A stretch of DNA of 64,000 nt from a virus, in the IMG/VR virus record IMGVR_UViG_3300042908_001001, positions 1 to 64,000 of that record. One strand, written 5' to 3'. Below the pieces are notes generated by a model. That model was given only the letters and a program-made list of their open reading frames with translations, searched no databases and was not told the DNA's origin. The translations under genes and the position numbers were made by a program. Within the stretch, counting starts at the first letter, position 1. Every line of letters begins with the position of its first letter. Positions 3,317-35,963 of this stretch are shown here, piece by piece.

Positions 3317-6148
3317 ATGGCACAGGCGGCGATAGGATTAGGAATATCTACAGGCTTAAGTTTGCTAGGAAATAGCCTTAAGCCTGTTTCTCGTAGTTAC
3401 AACGAGGTAAATAAATCAGATAGCCTTATCCTGCCAAAATCGGGATCGGGCTTCACTCTATCACGTATCTATGGCAAGAAAAAAATAGAATCCTGTTTTA
3501 TTTTTTGGGCAGTCGATAAAATTAATCGTCCGACAACCAGTACCCAAACTTCTGGTAGTAAAAAAAAAGGGAATCGATCATCAGTAACTACTACTACTAA
3601 TAATTATTTTTATACCTTTGCGGTGGCAGTTTGTGATGGGTCAAATAATAGCGTTTCAGAAATTAAACAGATTTATTTTAATGGGAAGATTTGGTATAAC
3701 GCAGAGGGTGAACTAGAGGGAACTGCACAAAATAATAGCTTTATTCTGTCTCAACATTTAGAAATTTATTTAGGAACCAGTGGGCAGGGGAAAAGTCCCA
3801 CCATTGAATCCTATGAAGGGAGTCGCAGAACACCTCCACTAAAGCATACTTGTTATTTGGTTTTTAAAGAAATTCCTGAATCGGTAGTCGGAACATGGCC
3901 TCCGACAATATCCGTCACAATCCAAGGATCAAAGGATAATCTATACACCACAATCAATGATGTTTGCGAATCGGCAGGATTAATAGAGTCGGTTCATTTT
4001 CACGCTGGTACGGTAGGGAATATCACAGTCACAGGAGCCGAATTTAAGCAGGACGGGGGGACTTATTCTGATTTTTTGGATGAACTACTACAGCGTCACT
4101 TTGTAATGGCTAGAATCGCAAATAATGGTAGTTATGGAGACTATAACGGAGCAATTCAATTCCTAAGACAGAATGATGAGGGGTTGACGACTCATACACT
4201 AACTGCCGACGATTTAAGGGCTAGAGAAGTCGGGTCTGGTGAAGACATAGAACCCTACAAAGAAATCTTTGAAGACGCTTTAAAATTACCGTCCGAAGTA
4301 TCAGTTACCGCAGTTGATCCTAACAATAAATTTAAAGCCATTTCGAGGTCTGTAATTAAACATGGCTTAACCCATAGGAATGTTCTAAACATTAACACCA
4401 ACCTTGCAATGACAGAGGGAATGTGTGATGAACTAGCCTATAAAAAACTCAAGCAAGCGTGGATTGAAAGGCGAGAATATGAAGAAATAACATTACTTCC
4501 CCACTGGTTAGACGCTGGTATGATCGCAGGGGATAAGCTGGTTTTGCCATTGGAATCAGGCGATAATGTGACGCTACAAATAACAGAGATTAATATCGGT
4601 GCTAATTTTCTTTTAAACATTAAAGCCAAGGCATTTGAAGAAGATTTATTTACTCAAGTTCCGACTAGAGAATTTAGCAACATTGTAACGGCTTCCACTA
4701 CGATTCAATTACCACAAACTAATTTAGTTAGTTTTACGTCATTAACTAATGCCGATGGAACTGTTGAGTATGAAAAAGATGTTGATTATTCAATCAATCT
4801 AGAAACGGGTGTAATTACCCCTATAGGAGCCGCTATTACATCGGGAAGTAGTTTAGTCGCAAACTATCAATCGGGTGTAGATACGACTACTGTAATCACG
4901 AATGATCCTACTTTAGAAACTCCAAACTATCCTGATCCTGAATTGGTTCTTTTGGATATTTATAAACCTAAATCAACAGATAGAGAAGGTTTATATATTG
5001 CGATTAAAAGCAATGGAGATTTTACGGATACGGGTATTTTTGCGAGAGAATCGGGGGGGACTTTTCAGCAAATTTCGGTTATCTCAAGCTTATCAACTGT
5101 TGGAACCATTTCAAATTCATTGCCCTTGGTGACGGGGGAAGATTTAACCAGTACATTAACGATTGTTTTAGACAATGGAACTATTGACCCTTTAAGCGAT
5201 ACTGATTACGGAAATAATGTTGAGGTATTGTTAATTGGAGATGAACAAGTCTGTATTAAAAACAAAACTTTAACGGCTCCTAATACTTACTCTTGTACGA
5301 CAATCAAGAGGGCTTTAAATGGAACTGTACCAGCTAGTCATGCGATTGGGACTAGGGTGATAATGCTTAAAGGTAATAATGACTTACCCTTGATTGAATT
5401 ACCATCAACTCAAATAGGTAAAACACTGGAATTTAAAGCGGTCGTGGTTGGCAAAACAATTAGTCAAGTTGCGACACAATATTCAATCAATTTTACTGGG
5501 AATGCTTGGGAATGTTTACCCGTTTCAAACGTCACAGCAACCAAGGATCAGGGTGGGAATATTTATATTGATTGGACAGGAAATAATAGAGGGACTGGGT
5601 TAGTATTACCAGAAAAATATGAAATAGATATTATCGATTCGGGAGTTATTAGAACACTAGAGACTTCTGTTAGTAATTGCGTTTATTCTTATACGGATCA
5701 AGTAACTGATTTTGGTAGTATTCAATCCACAATAGAGGTTATTATTTATCAGGTTTCTAGTGAAGTCGGTAGAGGTATTCCCTATGCTATTTCGCTTACT
5801 CCTAGTTTAGTTTCTATTATTCCAACTATTACGGATTTTTCTCCAAGGTCAGGATTAAATGGACAAATTACCATCTACGGAAACGGATTTACTGGATCTA
5901 CTGATGCAAGTATTAACGGTGTTTCAATCACTAGCTTTACTGTGGTTAGTGATGGGGTTATTACTGGGGATATTCCAACAGCCACGACAGGAAAAGTTAC
6001 CGTCACCAATTCAACGGGTACTGGTGAAAGTTTAACGGATTTCTTTATCACAAGTGGCTCTGTTTCTTGGGGTGAAATAGGGGGGACTGTTGGAACTAAT
6101 CCGTCACTTGAATATCAATTATTAAAAACATTTTGGATTTATTCTTAA
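3317..6148 (+). CDS. tail tip / central hub protein (J-like) with C-terminal TIG domain
   Basis: 943 residues. The N-terminal third resembles hub (host-specificity J / GTA gp15-type) proteins: a hydrophobic glycine-rich start, then GFTLSRIYGKKKIES and a metal- and aromatic-rich hub domain. The middle holds beta-sandwich repeats. Residues about 835-915 form an IPT/TIG immunoglobulin-like fold (PTITDFSPRSG ... ITIYGNGF). It probably closes the tail tip and contacts the receptor. Two small structural genes follow closely, so this looks like one late tail-tip transcript. The J-like call rests on N-terminal pattern, size and position; the TIG call is firmer. Confidence 0.75.
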   Translation: MAQAAIGLGISTGLSLLGNSLKPVSRSYNEVNKSDSLILPKSGSGFTLSRIYGKKKIESCFIFWAVDKINRPTTSTQTSGSKKKGNRSSVTTTTNNYFYTFAVAVCDGSNNSVSEIKQIYFNGKIWYNAEGELEGTAQNNSFILSQHLEIYLGTSGQGKSPTIESYEGSRRTPPLKHTCYLVFKEIPESVVGTWPPTISVTIQGSKDNLYTTINDVCESAGLIESVHFHAGTVGNITVTGAEFKQDGGTYSDFLDELLQRHFVMARIANNGSYGDYNGAIQFLRQNDEGLTTHTLTADDLRAREVGSGEDIEPYKEIFEDALKLPSEVSVTAVDPNNKFKAISRSVIKHGLTHRNVLNINTNLAMTEGMCDELAYKKLKQAWIERREYEEITLLPHWLDAGMIAGDKLVLPLESGDNVTLQITEINIGANFLLNIKAKAFEEDLFTQVPTREFSNIVTASTTIQLPQTNLVSFTSLTNADGTVEYEKDVDYSINLETGVITPIGAAITSGSSLVANYQSGVDTTTVITNDPTLETPNYPDPELVLLDIYKPKSTDREGLYIAIKSNGDFTDTGIFARESGGTFQQISVISSLSTVGTISNSLPLVTGEDLTSTLTIVLDNGTIDPLSDTDYGNNVEVLLIGDEQVCIKNKTLTAPNTYSCTTIKRALNGTVPASHAIGTRVIMLKGNNDLPLIELPSTQIGKTLEFKAVVVGKTISQVATQYSINFTGNAWECLPVSNVTATKDQGGNIYIDWTGNNRGTGLVLPEKYEIDIIDSGVIRTLETSVSNCVYSYTDQVTDFGSIQSTIEVIIYQVSSEVGRGIPYAISLTPSLVSIIPTITDFSPRSGLNGQITIYGNGFTGSTDASINGVSITSFTVVSDGVITGDIPTATTGKVTVTNSTGTGESLTDFFITSGSVSWGEIGGTVGTNPSLEYQLLKTFWIYS

Positions 6149-18236: not shown

Positions 18237-18403
18237 CACTAGGACGGCAATCATATCGAGCCATTATTACTCGCTATTCAAATCTTAAGCTTGACGATAA
18301 TATTCCCGCGATCGCAAGTCACCCGCTCAACCAATTCCCTGAAAATATCTCTCAACTCGAAATTAGTGGCAAGTCCCCAGAAATTAGGGTCGGATGTCGC
18401 TAG
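18233..18403 (+). CDS. possible short ORF truncated by the recombinase gene
   Basis: 56 codons from an ATG that overlaps the previous stop (ATGA) and follows GAGGTGAAG. All but the first 15 codons lie antisense to the recombinase 3' end. It may be the remnant of an operon gene cut by insertion of the recombinase, or chance. Confidence 0.3.
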   Translation: MTLGRQSYRAIITRYSNLKLDDNIPAIASHPLNQFPENISQLEISGKSPEIRVGCR

Positions 18404-19654
18404 TAAATGCTCACTTAATAAATGATTATTTCTTTCTCCATATTGAGCATTAATCAAATTACTTAATTTAGTTTCATCTGCAAGAATAATATCATTCAGT
18501 CTAGGATCGTTTAACGATTTTAGTTGAGTGATATTCTTTCTTAGTTCTCTAATTTCTGGACTTTCTACAATCTCAGATTCACCCTCACATCCCCATTTAG
18601 CAACCTCCTGGGAGCGTAAAATCAAGGCGTCTATCACAGCATCAATATAATCTTGAATCTTTAGTCCGTAACTGGTTCTTATGCCACAAGTCGCACTTTT
18701 TCCGCATCTTGGGTAAGCTCCGTTACAGTACAGATAATAGGCTTGTTTTCGTGCATTGATAACCGATTTGGCTGACATACGACTTCCACAAGTACAAAAT
18801 ATAGACCCTGCTAACGGATTTCTCAATGTATCTGATTTTTTCGTTGTTTTGCTTGAATCTAATATGTTTTGAATATTTAGCCATTCTGATACCGTAATCA
18901 ATGGTTCATGATGATTAGGAATTTCAATTCTTTTGTTTTGTTTCTTTGGAAAATAAACCAACGTACCAATCAATGACGGGTTTTTTAGCCAGTCAATAAA
19001 AGCCGATTGGGTGTGAGGGAAATCATCCTCATGCGCCCTTAATCTCTCAGTGCCAAATCGTTTACACAATGCCCTAACCGTTCCTGAAGCTGTTTGAATT
19101 TCATAAAAGGTATCAATCGCTATTCTTACGACTTCTGGGTAGGTTATTCCCGTATCTTTGTATAGATTCCTATTAATAATTAATTCATCATTCACCATCA
19201 AATAACCAAAACAGGGTTTAAGCGGTAAATGTTTTGATCTGCGGTGTTGCATCCCTTTTAACGCTTGCTCTTGATTTAATCGCCTCTGAAAAGCATCGGT
19301 AGCCGCGATCACACTACTGGTATAAATCCCTACTGCCGATGTAATATCAAGCTTCCCTCTGTCCAAAGAAATCATCGTCACTCGCATTCTTTCGCATCGA
19401 CTTCTCAAATCAGCCCATATCATTTCATCCCTAGCCAGTCTTGATTGCAAAGGAAAAATTAATTCATCCCCTTCTCTCAAGATTTTCATCACAAAATCCA
19501 AACCAGCCCGCCCCATCTTGCCGCCACTGATAATATCGTAATAAATATTTTCAGGCTCCACCCCCGCCGCGATCAATTCCTTGGTGTATCGCTCGCTCGC
19601 ACTATTGTCTTCAAATTGATGTAACGTTGATTGTCTCCAGTAACCGATTTTCAT
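18278..19654 (-). CDS. large serine recombinase, XisF-like (probable integrase)
   Basis: 458 residues from ATG 19654, which has an AGAGGG site; an upstream ATG at 19732 adds 26 residues with no support. The N-terminal catalytic domain has YWRQSTLHQ with nucleophile Ser9 and Arg7, and the SRLARDE motif. A recombinase domain follows, then a Cys zinc ribbon (FCTCGSRM ... YLYCNG), then a coiled coil. The sequence recalls the cyanobacterial fdxN-element recombinase XisF. It probably integrates or excises the phage. A 20-bp palindrome lies just upstream. Confidence 0.88.
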   Translation of the reverse strand: MKIGYWRQSTLHQFEDNSASERYTKELIAAGVEPENIYYDIISGGKMGRAGLDFVMKILREGDELIFPLQSRLARDEMIWADLRSRCERMRVTMISLDRGKLDITSAVGIYTSSVIAATDAFQRRLNQEQALKGMQHRRSKHLPLKPCFGYLMVNDELIINRNLYKDTGITYPEVVRIAIDTFYEIQTASGTVRALCKRFGTERLRAHEDDFPHTQSAFIDWLKNPSLIGTLVYFPKKQNKRIEIPNHHEPLITVSEWLNIQNILDSSKTTKKSDTLRNPLAGSIFCTCGSRMSAKSVINARKQAYYLYCNGAYPRCGKSATCGIRTSYGLKIQDYIDAVIDALILRSQEVAKWGCEGESEIVESPEIRELRKNITQLKSLNDPRLNDIILADETKLSNLINAQYGERNNHLLSEHLLATSDPNFWGLATNFELRDIFRELVERVTCDRGNIIVKLKI

Positions 19655-19680
19655 GGCTGTCCCTCTATTTGTGATTCCAT

Positions 19681-19700
19681 TATACAGCCCACCCTGTATA
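19681..19700. promoter_or_regulatory. 20-bp palindrome upstream of recombinase
   Basis: TATACAG, six bases, CTGTATA: a perfect 7-bp inverted repeat, 27 bp upstream of the recombinase start and 25 bp upstream of the divergent gene at 19725. It could be an operator or part of a serine-recombinase attachment site. Confidence 0.6.
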
Positions 19701-19724
19701 TTCAATGCACAAATAGACTGAAAC

Positions 19725-19931
19725 ATGGACAAGGAAAGGCTTCTGGCAAAATCAGCTTATCTCAAAGCAGTTAATACGATGCTACTCATAGGCATTGAAT
19801 CGCAATTTTTTCCGATAGCCGAAACAACCAGTTATGAATTTGCGATCGCGCTTTTGGAGTGCATCAAGTTGTCAAAAAATTTAGCTGAGGATATTTTGGA
19901 AATAATTGAAACGGGAGTAGACGAATATTGA
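19725..19931 (+). CDS. small helical protein divergent from recombinase
   Basis: 68 residues, helical and acidic, no recognised family. It is divergent from the recombinase across the 20-bp palindrome. The position suits a recombination directionality factor or a small regulator, but no motif supports either. Confidence 0.5.
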   Translation: MDKERLLAKSAYLKAVNTMLLIGIESQFFPIAETTSYEFAIALLECIKLSKNLAEDILEIIETGVDEY

Positions 19932-22251: not shown

Positions 22252-23124
22252 TTATTTTTTCTTGTATTTTTCGTCAATAATACAAGGGACTGCATTACTC
22301 CATATTGGGAAATGATGTAGTCTTTTGTGTGTTACTCCCATCATACGAATACACACAAAAGACGGAGAACAAATAAGAGTATAAAAGCTCTTAACATACG
22401 TTCCAGACATCTTATATAAATCCGACATTCCCCCTTCCGACTCCTGAGTAGTTGCCTGATTAATAGATATTAGTGGGATTGTCAAAAATACATTACCCAC
22501 AGAACCCAGTCTAGTATAGGTATTTACGTCTTCATTTATCCTGCCAAAAAACTTAAATGGGCGTTTTGTTGAGCAAATAAAACTGTTCATACACTTTCTT
22601 TTTATAAATGGATATTTCCCGTTTTTATACCCAAAGTTATTCCCCCCACCGATAAAATCACCCCTCTGAGAAAATGCAATAGACAATACTCTATCATCAA
22701 CATCAAAATAGTTAATTAAAGACAAAATAATTGAATCTATATTTTTTATTTCTCTCTGTTTAAAAACACCGTTCTCATCTTCTGTAAAAGAGAAATTACT
22801 ATAGTCATCATCTAACTGCATAAAATAAGCTATGCCTAGATTCTTTGCAATATCAAAACAGGCGTTTCTAGCATAAATAATCGCCCTTCTATCTCCAAAA
22901 TTATCAAACTCGTCAAATGTTTTCGAGATAGCTAACTTGTCAAACATAATGACATTTTCTTTTCCAAAATTCTCATAATACTTATCGGCTGTTTTATCCT
23001 CATTATCTATCACAATATAAACACGCCCAGTGTATCCACATCGTTGTAATGTGCGGCAAGTCTTTACATTATCAGGTCTTCCGTGAGTGAGGATAAAAAT
23101 AGCAAAGTCTTCTAGTTTACTCAT
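22252..23124 (-). CDS. glycosyltransferase-like protein (TET-associated GT type)
   Basis: 290 residues. The N-terminus (IFILTHGRPDNVKTCRTL ... YIVIDNEDKTADKYYENF) and a DxD-type metal/nucleotide-sugar motif (QLDDDY, about 105-110) fit the phage TAGT-like glycosyltransferases, some of which are encoded beside DNA-oxidising TET enzymes and predicted to glycosylate modified bases. I start at the second ATG (23124), which has AGGA 8 bp upstream. It overlaps the ParB-like gene. Target (DNA base, protein or surface sugar) cannot be told from sequence. Confidence 0.7.
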   Translation of the reverse strand: MSKLEDFAIFILTHGRPDNVKTCRTLQRCGYTGRVYIVIDNEDKTADKYYENFGKENVIMFDKLAISKTFDEFDNFGDRRAIIYARNACFDIAKNLGIAYFMQLDDDYSNFSFTEDENGVFKQREIKNIDSIILSLINYFDVDDRVLSIAFSQRGDFIGGGNNFGYKNGKYPFIKRKCMNSFICSTKRPFKFFGRINEDVNTYTRLGSVGNVFLTIPLISINQATTQESEGGMSDLYKMSGTYVKSFYTLICSPSFVCIRMMGVTHKRLHHFPIWSNAVPCIIDEKYKKK

Positions 23125-23986
23125 CACCATAATCCTCTAAATATTGGTTAGCAATTTCTTCTTTTAATTTGACATAACCAAGTCTCAACGCTTTGTCAAA
23201 ATCAATAATAACTAAAGCAGAATCTTCCATTAGAGATTGAACTTCTTTGTTTGAATGTGCATAAAAATCCGCTATATCTTGATAATTAAAAACAATATGC
23301 CTAGTCGCACATTTTATTAAAAATTCTTTTTCTTCTTTTGTAATATTAGATTCTTGAATATCATTGATCAACTCATTGTATCTGGTGTCATTATAAAGAT
23401 TTTGTATTAATGGCTTATCTTCACTCGGTTCATATATTGGAGCGTCTATTTTATGGGAATATTGACTATCTAAAACATTATTATTTTCTTCTTCCGTAGA
23501 ACCGACTACATTATTGTTGACATTATCCCCAATAACTTGACTACCTTGAAACTCAGTTCCATTCTCCTCATCATTATTAAACCCTGCTAACAAACCAGAT
23601 AAATCATTAGAGTTAAAACCCGTAAAATCAAGATTATAATCATTCAATTGTAATGATTCAAACTCAATCTTTAATAGTTCATTATCCCACCCTGATAATT
23701 CACCAGCACGATTATCCGCAACCCTAGCCGCTTTGACCTCAATCGGTGCTAAATCATCCCTAACAATAACAGGAACCTGTTTAAGAGCTAATTTTAGGGA
23801 AGCTAAACGTCTTCCATGCCCTTTGATAATGACATTTTTAGAATCGACAACAATGGGAACATCAAAACCAAATTCTGCAATCATACTAGCAAGCGTTGTT
23901 ATTTGCTCATCAGAATGCGTCCTAGTATTATTCACATAGGGAATTAAATCTTTCGGATCACGATATTCAATCTTTACTTGGGACAT
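23117..23986 (-). CDS. ParB-like N-terminal domain protein
   Basis: 289 residues. Residues about 1-95 are a ParB/sulfiredoxin-type domain (DLIPYVNNTRTHSDEQ, IIKGHGRRLAS, VPVIVRDDL). The GHGRR motif is the expected nucleotide/phosphate-binding loop. The rest is Asn-rich and unlike methyltransferases that are often fused to this domain in phages. Placed between TerS-like and glycosyltransferase genes. Roles in packaging or DNA modification are both known contexts for this domain. Confidence 0.8.
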   Translation of the reverse strand: MSQVKIEYRDPKDLIPYVNNTRTHSDEQITTLASMIAEFGFDVPIVVDSKNVIIKGHGRRLASLKLALKQVPVIVRDDLAPIEVKAARVADNRAGELSGWDNELLKIEFESLQLNDYNLDFTGFNSNDLSGLLAGFNNDEENGTEFQGSQVIGDNVNNNVVGSTEEENNNVLDSQYSHKIDAPIYEPSEDKPLIQNLYNDTRYNELINDIQESNITKEEKEFLIKCATRHIVFNYQDIADFYAHSNKEVQSLMEDSALVIIDFDKALRLGYVKLKEEIANQYLEDYGDE

Positions 23987-33444: not shown

Positions 33445-34090
33445 AGAAGACGCTAAAACTAGGGATGATTTAATCTGGAATGATAAAGAAAAAATCTACT
33501 ATCACGCTAACGGTAGGAAAATTTCTCAATATCAGATGCTTCAGTTAATTAGGCGTGAACAAAAAGCGTTTAATCAAGATATTGACGTTTACACTAGAGG
33601 GTTATTAAATAAGGCTATAAGTTTTGAAGATTATCAAAAGTTAGTTAAGGAGTCTGTCAGGGATTCTCATGTTCAAATGATGCGATTGGGTCGCGGTGGG
33701 AAGGAACGGACGGCGGCTATCCATTATCTAGACGTTGCCAACGAATTAAGGGAAAATCAATACCCCCCGTTGAGGGATTTATTTCAACAGTTAGCCGATG
33801 GTAAGCTTTCGGAAGCTCAACTCAAGGCAAGATTAAAAGCATACATCAAGGCTTCCAAAATCAGCTTTGAGCGGGGTAGAGAAAGCCAGCAAGCCATGAT
33901 TAAGCCGATGGAGGTTAGATTGTTAGGCTCTACCGATAGGCACTGCTCAGATTGCATTTATTACGCAAGTAGGGGTATTCAACCATTGGGGACGTTGCCA
34001 GTCCCAGGGCAAGCTTGCCAGTGTCGTCAAAACTGCCTTTGCTCTAAGATTTTTGGGACTCTTGAGGAGTTGGTAAAAAGATTAGCTTGA
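33422..34090 (+). CDS. minor head / head morphogenesis protein
   Basis: 222 residues. A helical N-terminus leads to a Cys-rich C-terminal block (HCSDCIYY ... QACQCRQNCLC) like that ending SPP1 gp7/Mu F-type head proteins. It follows the portal, the usual place. The stop codon overlaps a strong downstream promoter. Confidence 0.7.
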   Translation: MNNQIEIKEDAKTRDDLIWNDKEKIYYHANGRKISQYQMLQLIRREQKAFNQDIDVYTRGLLNKAISFEDYQKLVKESVRDSHVQMMRLGRGGKERTAAIHYLDVANELRENQYPPLRDLFQQLADGKLSEAQLKARLKAYIKASKISFERGRESQQAMIKPMEVRLLGSTDRHCSDCIYYASRGIQPLGTLPVPGQACQCRQNCLCSKIFGTLEELVKRLA

Positions 34091-34115
34091 CAAAAATTAA
34101 AACATTTATTATGAT
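34087..34115 (+). promoter_or_regulatory. strong promoter of non-coding RNA region
   Basis: TTGACA (34087-34092), 17 bp, TATGAT (34110-34115). Both boxes are near consensus. It overlaps the stop of the minor head gene and points into a 500-bp stretch with no credible ORF. Confidence 0.8.
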
Positions 34116-34427
34116 TTTAGATAAGGTGATCAAGGCTAGTGAATCCCGAATGGGTGTACCGTTCAGTGACCCACGAGCGTAGTAAGAACGATAAGAGTTG
34201 CACTTATCCATTTATACGGATAAGTCTAGTAATGATCTCCTTTAACGGGCGGAATAGAAAGTGGATTCTCTCGGAATGATCAACCGAATGGTATGTCACA
34301 TCCGTCCATTCCCGTTTTCGGGATACATGGGAGAGATGATAGGGAGTACCCTAAAAAGTGCGATGAACTATCACCACTCCAGCCTAGTGAAGTGTGTCCC
34401 GTTTTCGGAAAAACAAGGCGATCAAAA
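34116..34427 (+). ncRNA. structured non-coding RNA segment
   Basis: No ORF here has a ribosome site. Inverted repeats include a perfect 8-bp hairpin ACTTATCC/GGATAAGT (34202-34225), GAATGG/CCATTC, two CCCGTTTTCGG hairpins (near 34311 and 34398), and GATAG/CTATC. At 34247-34308 a short cloverleaf can be drawn: 7-bp acceptor GGGCGGA/TCCGTCC, a 4-bp D arm and an anticodon arm with loop ATGATCA (GAT), but no room for a T arm. It may be a degenerate tRNA. Confidence 0.5.
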
Positions 34428-34526
34428 GCGGCTAATGGCGGAAATATGAGAGACGCGCTTGATTTTATCAGGTTCTTATCCCCTTTTTGAGGGTAAGAGT
34501 CCAGTTGCAAGTTCTGGTTAGCCGCG
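34428..34526 (+). tRNA. degenerate class II (Leu-like) tRNA
   Basis: Acceptor GCGGCTA (34428-34434) pairs perfectly with TAGCCGC (34519-34525). D stem GCG/CGC; the stretch GGCGGAA ... GACGCGCT is characteristic of tRNA-Leu. A long variable arm (TCTTA-CCC/GGG-TAAGA) and a T arm CCAG/CTGG with loop TGCAAGT follow. Defects: no GG in the D loop, G at T-loop position 55, and an anticodon arm with a 5-base loop, or a 7-base loop reading TTT if G-U pairs are used. Probably not a standard tRNA. Confidence 0.6.
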
Positions 34527-34539
34527 ATCGCCTTTAATT

Positions 34540-34610
34540 GGGGAGTTAGCAAAGAGGTAATGCAGGGGAGATTCGTCCCCGACACTCAGGTTCGAGTCCT
34601 GAACACCCCA
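34540..34610 (+). tRNA. tRNA-like gene with 6-base anticodon loop
   Basis: Acceptor GGGGAGT pairs with ACACCCC at 6 of 7 positions; D stem GCA/TGC with a GG-containing loop; T arm TCAGG-TTCGAGT-CCTGA is perfect; variable loop 5 bases; discriminator A. The anticodon stem GGGGA/TCCCC closes a loop of six bases (GATTCG) instead of seven. Identity (TTC, Glu?) is therefore uncertain. Confidence 0.65.
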
Positions 34611-34612
34611 TT

Positions 34613-34792
34613 TTATTTATCCTTAACCGAATTTTGCCCTGTAAGGTATCCGAGTATTCCCCCGATGCCTACCTTGGCAATATCCCCCGCAATGGGAAGG
34701 GATTCAATCGGGTTTTCCCAAGGTTTAGACGATAGCCAAATCACGACAATGGCAGTCACCACAAAGATAGGCAAAAACTCAGCAAGTTTCAT
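34613..34792 (-). CDS. small membrane protein
   Basis: 59 residues. ATG overlaps the stop of the upstream gene (ATGA). One clear transmembrane helix (FLPIFVVTAIVVIWL) and a second weaker glycine-rich one (VGIGGILGYL). Size and topology would suit a holin-type protein, but nothing specific supports it. Last gene of the minus-strand oxygenase operon; it ends just beyond the tRNA-like gene on the other strand. Confidence 0.6.
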   Translation of the reverse strand: MKLAEFLPIFVVTAIVVIWLSSKPWENPIESLPIAGDIAKVGIGGILGYLTGQNSVKDK

Positions 34793-35046
34793 TTAATATT
34801 CCTGTTATTTTTAATGACAAGTAGAGCTATTTTAGGGATTGTAACCCCCATCCAAAAAAGATTAAGCCATGTCGATGAATAAGCACCGTAAAACCCAGTA
34901 TAAATTACAAGAAACAATCCCCCTAAAAAATTAGAAATAAGATATGAAAACGAGTCTGTTGTGATTTTTTTGTTAAAACTTAAATAATAAGACCCTAATA
35001 CTAAAATCGTTCCAATCCACCCAAGAATATCAATTAATAGTTTCAT
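34789..35046 (-). CDS. three-helix membrane protein
   Basis: 85 residues, three hydrophobic segments (ILGWIGTILVLGSYYLS; FLGGLFLVIYTGFYGAY; FWMGVTIPKIALLVI), resembling the CBU_0592-like family of small bacterial membrane proteins. Start overlaps the oxygenase stop (TAATG). Function unknown. Confidence 0.6.
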   Translation of the reverse strand: MKLLIDILGWIGTILVLGSYYLSFNKKITTDSFSYLISNFLGGLFLVIYTGFYGAYSSTWLNLFWMGVTIPKIALLVIKNNRNIK

Positions 35047-35963
35047 TATTCCTCAATATAAATATCGTACCCTATAATATTTCTAATCCCTTGCACAGGA
35101 GAACCATCCGATTCAATTGGTTCAACGTCATGCCATAAAGGGGAACCCACATCAGCTTGAAAAATAGCATCGCCTTCTAACAATAAAGTCCTTAGAAGTT
35201 CGGTTTTTTTGTCATCATCATAGACAACGCTTTCACCTCCAATTATGCCTTTTCGTTCTACTACTAAAGCAGAAACAATATAGTCACATCCATCTTGGTG
35301 AATACCTTCAGGAGCATTAGATTCTTCCCGATTATCATCAGGCTTAGAAACAATTCCCACTTGTTGGCAAATGATTTTTATTTTTTTAGTTTCCCCCTTT
35401 TCGGCAATATCCGTAAACGTTGCTAGGTAAGCCAGTATTTTCCTGAATTCATCATTGCTAGTTACTTCTACAGGAGATGGGGGGAATGATCTTGGTAAGT
35501 TTCGGTAATCAAGTAAAACGTCAGACGTTTGGCGGTACGGGACATAAGGCAACTGCTCAATACTCCATTCAAAGTCTTCACCACTTTTCCCCAATAAAAA
35601 GCTAGATATACCCCGTCTTCGATAGGGTTGAATTTCTTCAAAAGCCGCAATATCTTCTTTGTCAAATCGATCAACAAAACGCCTTAAATCCGACAATGAA
35701 ATTATATCCGCAAAATAATCAGGCAAAAAAGTTTCTAGAAAAAACTCTCTTAACCAAGGAAACTTTTCGATCAGGAAATCTACTTGATCACGCTTAACTA
35801 AATACATATCCCAAGGAAGAGATTCGTAGGTTGGGCATATGTTCTGTAGTTTACCTAAATCAATTCCAACATCTCGCAAATTAAATTTAAGTATTGGATA
35901 TTCTGTATTTAGTTTTTCAACTAATGAATTTGCCAAGGTCAAGGTCTTGTAATAACTGATCAT
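35046..35963 (-). CDS. 2-oxoglutarate/Fe(II)-dependent oxygenase (PF10014-like)
   Basis: 305 residues. The C-terminal third holds the catalytic core: PEGIHQDGCDYIV with iron ligands His222 and Asp224, GGESVVYDD, distal ligand His278 (LWHDVEPI) and 2-oxoglutarate Arg294 (GIRNIIGYDI). This order and spacing match the 2OG-Fe dioxygenase family that includes bacterial amino-acid (isoleucine) hydroxylases. The first 200 residues are not recognised and are longer than I expect for the family. Substrate unknown: free amino acid, protein or nucleic acid. It leads an operon with two membrane proteins. Confidence 0.82.
   Translation of the reverse strand: MISYYKTLTLANSLVEKLNTEYPILKFNLRDVGIDLGKLQNICPTYESLPWDMYLVKRDQVDFLIEKFPWLREFFLETFLPDYFADIISLSDLRRFVDRFDKEDIAAFEEIQPYRRRGISSFLLGKSGEDFEWSIEQLPYVPYRQTSDVLLDYRNLPRSFPPSPVEVTSNDEFRKILAYLATFTDIAEKGETKKIKIICQQVGIVSKPDDNREESNAPEGIHQDGCDYIVSALVVERKGIIGGESVVYDDDKKTELLRTLLLEGDAIFQADVGSPLWHDVEPIESDGSPVQGIRNIIGYDIYIEE

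What the first reader, a model, noticed from the sequence alone, without database searches (positions are those of the whole stretch)
34087..34615. Promoter-driven RNA region with tRNA-like genes that have abnormal anticodon arms
A near-consensus promoter (TTGACA, 17 bp, TATGAT) points into 500 bp with no credible gene. Inside, 34428-34526 folds as a class II Leu-like tRNA and 34540-34610 as a near-complete cloverleaf. Their anticodon loops are 5 or 7 (G-U dependent) and 6 bases. A third, T-arm-less shape can be drawn at 34247. These could be decoys, resistant copies against anticodon nucleases, charged but non-decoding tRNAs, or decayed genes. Known: phages carry tRNAs that counter host tRNA-cutting defences. 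The specific role here is inference.
Basis: partly seen in the sequence, partly recalled or inferred. Interest (0 to 1): 0.8.

Follow-up and report, generated by a model that had tools for sequence, protein, structure and literature searches.

The report
Phage tRNA-derived genes unable to decode
A virus of cyanobacteria carries, behind a plausible promoter, a Gln-type and a Leu-type tRNA gene whose bodies are well kept but whose anticodon loops are too short to read codons, so they are either non-translating tRNA mimics or eroding tRNA genes.

Summary
The window belongs to a 76.5 kb cyanophage-like virus record. Two tRNA-derived genes are real. Unit E (34539-34611) passes the Rfam tRNA cut-off and is nearest to cyanobacterial tRNA-Gln (z 13.4 against shuffles). 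Unit B (34428-34526) is nearest to tRNA-Leu (z 7.8). Neither can decode: E has a 6-nt anticodon loop, B a 5-nt loop. The 'T-arm-less shape' at 34247 is not supported. Units at 34123-34244 and 34319-34401 fold better than shuffles but are not recognisable tRNAs. The promoter score alone is ordinary for this genome; its position makes it credible.

New here: both units have an 8-bp acceptor stem, with one base inserted on each strand. Against host tRNAs each keeps 19 of 20 pairs, with five compensatory changes each. That argues against neutral decay, but some changes may predate loss of decoding, and no relative of the array was found. Distant relatives carry a different tRNA-like RNA with a closed 6-bp anticodon arm and strong covariation, so the type has a precedent. 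I favour non-decoding tRNA mimics, only level with relics. No function is shown.

The parts
34087..34115 (+). sigma-70-type promoter-like site TTGACA-17-TATGAT, overlapping the stop codon of the MuF-like gene; expected start about 34121-34123
   Evidence: 11 of 12 consensus positions; such scores are near random expectation genome-wide, position is the argument
34123..34244 (+). unit A: structured stretch with closing helix AAGGUGAUCA/UGAUCUCCUU; shares flanks with unit B; not recognisable as a tRNA
   Evidence: fold z -2.9; A-B alignment z 3.35, 0 of 300 shuffles
   Evidence: fold z -0.8; no better than shuffles against host tRNAs
34319..34401 (+). unit D: stretch closed by a 9-bp helix CGGGAUACA/UGUGUCCCG; not recognisable as a tRNA
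   Evidence: fold z -2.3; no better than shuffles against host tRNAs
34415..34534 (+). outer 9-bp perfect inverted repeat AAGGCGATC (34415-34423) / GATCGCCTT (34526-34534) enclosing unit B
   Evidence: fold z of the whole -4.3
34428..34526 (+). unit B: Leu-type tRNA-derived gene, 8-bp acceptor GCGGCUAA/UUAGCCGC, anticodon arm 34458-34472 with 5-nt loop UUUUA, GG of the D loop lost, T loop UGCAAGU, long variable arm
   Evidence: nearest host tRNA Leu(CAG), z 7.8; ARAGORN at 90% threshold
34539..34611 (+). unit E: Gln-type tRNA-derived gene, 8-bp acceptor UGGGGAGU/ACACCCCA with one A.A mismatch, normal D and T loops, anticodon arm 34565-34580 with 6-nt loop GAUUCG
   Evidence: RF00005 42.8 bits, cut-off 29; nearest host tRNA Gln(UUG), z 13.4; ARAGORN

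Best explanation
Units E and B are tRNA-derived, non-decoding RNAs made from the promoter at 34087. They descend from tRNA-Gln and tRNA-Leu genes, keep the tRNA body and have lost the ability to read codons; both gained an eighth acceptor pair. The likeliest way they work is as tRNA mimics outside translation: they bind a host protein that recognises tRNA by its body or acceptor end (a tRNA-cutting defence enzyme, a processing enzyme or a synthetase) and tie it up or redirect it, while the shortened loop keeps them off the ribosome and offers no anticodon to cut. Shown: tRNA descent of E and B, loop lengths, 8-bp acceptors, pairing pattern, placement behind a promoter-like site. Inferred: transcription, selection after the loss of decoding, and the whole binding step.
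For: Relative to the host tRNAs, E and B each keep 19 of 20 stem pairs and show five compensatory double changes; random placement of the same substitutions would break 7.6 and 8.6 pairs (P 0.00015 and 0.00005), and neutral change at the rate seen in the anticodon loops would break 8-10 (P about 0.001 or less). In both units an extra acceptor pair arose by one inserted base on each strand. D and T loops of E are nearly unchanged while its anticodon loop is rewritten. E is far more diverged than any cyanobacterial tRNA-Gln seen: 242 of 244 genomes match the S. salina tRNA-Gln and only 5 give even a weak partial match to E. The array starts about 8 nt behind a promoter-like site and fills an intergenic gap. 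Precedent: distant relatives keep another tRNA-like RNA with a closed 6-bp anticodon stem, paired in all 21 copies with strong covariation.
Against: The compensatory changes may have arisen while the genes still decoded; if the loops changed in one event each, the neutral test weakens to P about 0.05. The pairing comparison rests on hand alignment to a host tRNA that may not be the true parent. A, C and D look like eroded or unrelated sequence. B has lost GG18-19 and U55 and one T-stem pair, E has an acceptor mismatch. No homologue of the array was found, so selection on it is not shown directly. No target protein is known; no tRNA-related enzyme was noticed among the proteins scanned. No transcript data.
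Confidence: 0.4

Rival explanations
1. A decaying phage tRNA array. The phage once had a small tRNA operon; A, C and D have eroded almost completely, B partly and E last. Nothing that matters is made.
For: All five units lack a working anticodon arm; A, C and D are no nearer to tRNAs than shuffles; C has no stable fold; no relative carries the array.
Against: Only one broken pair of 20 in each of E and B; both gained a paired eighth acceptor position; A, B and D fold better than shuffles.
Confidence: 0.4
2. A structured non-coding RNA with a tRNA-like module at the end of a long helix, working like bacterial Y RNA (YrlA), which pairs with Ro60.
For: B sits in a perfect outer helix that pairs its discriminator base and trailer, A has a similar outer helix; this resembles the build of YrlA (recalled).
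Against: No TROVE/Ro60 gene in the virus record or in S. salina, while the same search finds one in a control virus contig and a control genome; no Rfam match apart from tRNA.
Confidence: 0.08
3. Normal or frameshifting tRNAs in which the unusual loops still read codons.
For: E passes the Rfam tRNA cut-off; tRNAs with altered loop size that shift frame are known (general knowledge, 8-nt loops).
Against: Known frame-changing tRNAs have larger loops; 5- and 6-nt loops without U33 cannot present a codon-reading triplet in the usual way (established tRNA knowledge).
Confidence: 0.05
4. DNA-level role: attachment site of the phage integrase, or a tRNA gene that replaces a host tRNA lost on integration (tRNA-dependent lysogeny).
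For: The phage codes for a large serine integrase at 18278-19732; tRNA-dependent lysogeny is known (PMC10865867, with tyrosine integrases).
Against: The 3' half of E is not identical to host tRNA-Gln, the integrase gene lies 14 kb away, and a non-decoding tRNA cannot replace an essential one.
Confidence: 0.03
5. Sequencing or assembly errors in a metagenomic contig shortened the loops of ordinary tRNA genes.
For: Single contig; no second copy was available.
Against: Loop changes include several substitutions, not only lost bases; two units carry paired insertions on both strands; neighbouring reading frames are intact.
Confidence: 0.04

Closest known systems
Phage-encoded tRNA genes and arrays, including those proposed to resist host tRNA-cutting enzymes (PMC10264068, PMC11555353)
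   Same: tRNA-derived genes in tandem behind a promoter; changes concentrated in the anticodon loop
   Different: Known ones keep decoding loops and only change bases; here the loops are 5 and 6 nt and cannot decode
Non-proteinogenic tRNA-Gly of Staphylococcus aureus (PMC4052509)
   Same: A tRNA kept outside translation; loss of GG18-19 as in unit B
   Different: Those keep a normal anticodon arm and lie in a cell with a known user enzyme; unit E keeps GG18-19
Bacterial Y RNA (YrlA) with a tRNA-like module
   Same: tRNA-like module enclosed by a long terminal helix (unit B)
   Different: No Ro60/TROVE gene here; E has no outer helix
tRNA-like RNA between nrdB and a phosphoesterase gene in distantly related phages (found here)
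   Same: Anticodon arm closed to a 5-nt loop while the T arm stays normal
   Different: 7-bp acceptor, short D arm, other gene position; E scores 23.1 bits with that model, members 72-94; homology to E or B not shown

Membership tests
Functional elongator tRNA (Gln, Leu) | cloverleaf recognisable by the tRNA family model or by nearest host tRNA | tested here: met
   E 42.8 bits RF00005, nearest Gln z 13.4; B nearest Leu z 7.8; B itself gives no RF00005 match at E up to 10
Functional elongator tRNA (Gln, Leu) | 7-nt anticodon loop with U33 and a cognate anticodon | tested here: not met
   loops GAUUCG (6 nt) and UUUUA (5 nt)
Functional elongator tRNA (Gln, Leu) | 7-bp acceptor stem | tested here: not met
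   8 bp in both E and B
Nuclease-resistant phage tRNA | still decodes, with changed bases at the cleavage site | tested here: not met
   loops cannot decode; cleavage itself not testable
Selenocysteine tRNA | long variable arm, 8-bp acceptor, UCA anticodon, own Rfam family | tested here: not met
   B has the first two; no UCA anticodon and no match to any Rfam family at E up to 10
Bacterial Y RNA (YrlA) | partner Ro60 (TROVE) gene | tested here: not met
   no TROVE match in the record; control contig and control genome ring; the record may be incomplete
tRNA pseudogene | stems broken as often as loops change | tested here: inconclusive
   one broken pair of 20 in each of E and B, P 0.05 to below 0.001 depending on the loop rate
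Integrase attachment site in a tRNA gene | 3' part identical to the host tRNA gene | tested here: not met
   E differs from tRNA-Gln in T stem, T loop and junction
Non-translating tRNA mimic | transcribed, stable, bound by a host protein | not testable with these tools
   needs RNA and binding experiments

The most novel reading that the evidence does not exclude
Some phages keep dedicated non-decoding tRNA mimics, recognisable by a closed or shortened anticodon arm and in part by an 8-bp acceptor, that act on host tRNA-binding proteins during infection. This array and the covarying tRNA-like RNA of the distant relatives would be two independent examples.
Probability: 0.3. Interest if true: 0.8.

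Novelty: new variant of a known kind. Interest (0 to 1): 0.5.

Why it matters
Phage tRNAs are usually explained by codon supply or by replacing tRNAs cut by the host. tRNA-derived genes that cannot decode but keep their fold would point to a third use, as mimics or decoys. The covarying family in the distant relatives makes that testable in many phages, not only in this single contig.

Tried and rejected
DNA similarity of the array in phages, plasmids and 386 cyanobacterial genomes: nothing. Exact and degenerate patterns in viral contigs for the T arm of E, the D arm of B and an 8-bp-acceptor Gln type: nothing; the 8-bp-acceptor Leu pattern gave 24 stretches, mostly coding chance plus a few odd tRNA-like genes. 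Closest relative by MuF protein (L101, 47%): no array after MuF; its only tRNA-like stretch is a 3' fragment of tRNA-Pro beside what reads like an integrase, probably its attachment site. Portal-based relatives in cyanobacterial genomes: none close. Protein coding in the array: rejected. The T-arm-less tRNA at 34247: rejected. I first drew A, C and D as tRNAs by eye; shuffle tests did not support that. Selenocysteine tRNA, Y RNA and attachment site: tested, not met. ARAGORN below a 90% threshold is useless here (32 and 199 hits in the window at 80% and 70%).

Full report
What the window is. It lies in a virus record of 76,533 bases. It codes for a portal, a MuF-like protein, a head maturation protease, a major head protein, tail proteins, a large serine integrase, thymidylate synthase, a sigma-factor-like protein and DNA methyltransferases. 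Its ribonucleotide reductase small subunit is up to 80% identical to cyanobacterial proteins, best in Synechocystis salina, and the portal and MuF-like proteins point to phages of Synechococcus, Aphanizomenon and Cylindrospermopsis. A cyanobacterial host is inferred. No phage, plasmid or cyanobacterial genome searched holds the array.

Anatomy. The MuF-like gene ends at 34090. TTGACA (34087-34092) overlaps its stop codon and TATGAT ends at 34115, so a transcript would start at about 34121-34123, where the first helix (unit A) begins. The array runs to 34611; two nucleotides further lies the end of a convergent gene for a 59-aa membrane protein. Promoter-like sites this good occur eight times in the genome, near random expectation; a site at exactly this place is what makes it plausible.

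Unit E (34539-34611). It passes Rfam's tRNA cut-off with 42.8 bits. Among 39 tRNA types of S. salina it is nearest to tRNA-Gln(UUG), z 13.4 above dinucleotide shuffles. tRNA-Gln varies little in cyanobacteria: 242 of 244 genomes match the S. salina gene, most listed ones at 86-100% identity, while only five give a weak partial match to E. E has an 8-bp acceptor (one base inserted on each strand, one A.A mismatch), normal D and T loops, and an anticodon arm GGGGA-GAUUCG-UCCCC.

Unit B (34428-34526). It is nearest to tRNA-Leu(CAG), z 7.8. It too has an 8-bp acceptor with one base inserted on each strand, all paired. The anticodon arm is CUUGA-UUUUA-UCAGG, the D loop lacks GG and the T loop is UGCAAGU. 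A perfect 9-bp outer helix encloses it and pairs its discriminator base. It is the most stable fold of the array (z -4.3).

Units A, C and D. A shares flanks with B (alignment z 3.35) and folds better than shuffles (z -2.9). D folds better than shuffles (z -2.3). C does not (z -0.8). None is recognisable as a tRNA, and I do not claim that they are.

Selection or decay. Against the host tRNAs, E has 11 and B 13 stem substitutions, which give five compensatory double changes and one broken pair each; B has one further one-sided change that still pairs. Randomly placed substitutions would break 7.6 and 8.6 pairs (P 0.00015 and 0.00005). Neutral change at the rate of the loops would break 8 to 10 pairs (P about 0.001 or less). 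If the loops changed in single events the test weakens to P about 0.05. The alignments were made by hand on the cloverleaf, the host tRNA may not be the parent, and part of the changes may be older than the loss of decoding. I read this as moderate evidence against neutral decay.

A precedent in distant relatives. Contigs found with MuF and portal alignments carry a tRNA-like RNA of about 70 nt; in the two contigs annotated (L115, L203) it lies between a ribonucleotide reductase beta gene and a phosphoesterase gene. In 21 distinct copies its 6-bp anticodon stem is paired in every copy, with double changes in four of six pairs; the whole structure has 50 cells with a double change against 14.6 in shuffles (for the first ten). 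That alignment was fitted to the model, but the first one was made without it and gives the same picture. The loop mostly lacks U33 and the 'anticodon' varies. Homology to E or B is not shown: E scores 23.1 bits with that model, members 72-94. It does show that phages with related virion genes keep a tRNA-shaped RNA whose anticodon arm is closed.

Mechanism. My best guess is a tRNA mimic that occupies or redirects a host protein which recognises the tRNA body or acceptor end. This is inference. The nuclease-resistant-copy idea requires decoding and fits badly: changing the anticodon or mutating the stem-loops of a phage tRNA-Tyr abolished its rescue effect (PMC11555353), and the resistant phage tRNAs of PMC10264068 are proposed to replace cut tRNAs in translation. 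Staphylococcal tRNA-Gly isoacceptors kept for cell-wall synthesis have lost GG18-19 (PMC4052509), as B has, but keep a normal anticodon arm as far as I know. Decay is about as likely as a kept function.

Verdict. Real, unusual and not explained; a new variant of a known kind. Interest 0.5, because a single contig without relatives of the array cannot decide between function and decay.

Noticed in passing
L115:2564-2634, L203:4173-4243, L243:3712-3781 and about 20 further distinct copies in viral contigs: A conserved tRNA-like RNA of about 70 nt with a 6-bp, always paired and covarying anticodon stem, 5-nt loop, U33 mostly absent and a varying 'anticodon'; in L115 and L203 it lies between nrdB and a phosphoesterase gene. 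Covariation far above shuffles.
   Followed up: partly
L152:2185-2250, L113:2331-2396, L112:2127-2192, L177:1091-1156, L251:3654-3719, L209:4426-4491: A diverged sub-family of that RNA with a reduced D arm and T-loop UGCAAUU or GGCAGUU instead of UUCRANU.
   Followed up: no
L321:500-1060: A 110 kb virus contig (G417) with a Ro60-like (TROVE) gene directly preceded by a tandem of tRNA-like stretches with repeated elements CTTGCCC...GAGCCGA...GGGTTATC; looks like a phage array of Y RNA-like tRNA mimics.
   Followed up: partly
L309:7178-7313, L313:11690-11790, L304 minus strand near 5700: Leu-like tRNA genes in unrelated virus contigs with an acceptor of 8 bp and abnormal central regions without a clear anticodon arm. 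They were selected by a pattern that asks for the longer acceptor.
   Followed up: partly
L262:1955-2037 (G389, minus strand): A 3' fragment of tRNA-Pro(UGG) beside a reading frame that reads like an integrase, in the closest MuF relative: probably its attachment site.
   Followed up: partly
window 54921, 55683, 57607, 58289 (+): Four identical promoter-like sites TTGACA-17-TAAGAT within 3.5 kb: possibly a repeated promoter of one gene region.
   Followed up: no
window 35046-35963 (-): A 2OG-Fe dioxygenase (PF10014, E 3.1e-25), next gene but one to the array.
   Followed up: no
window 22252-23130 (-): A TET-associated glycosyltransferase family protein (PF20691) next to a ParB-like gene: may modify phage DNA.
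   Followed up: no
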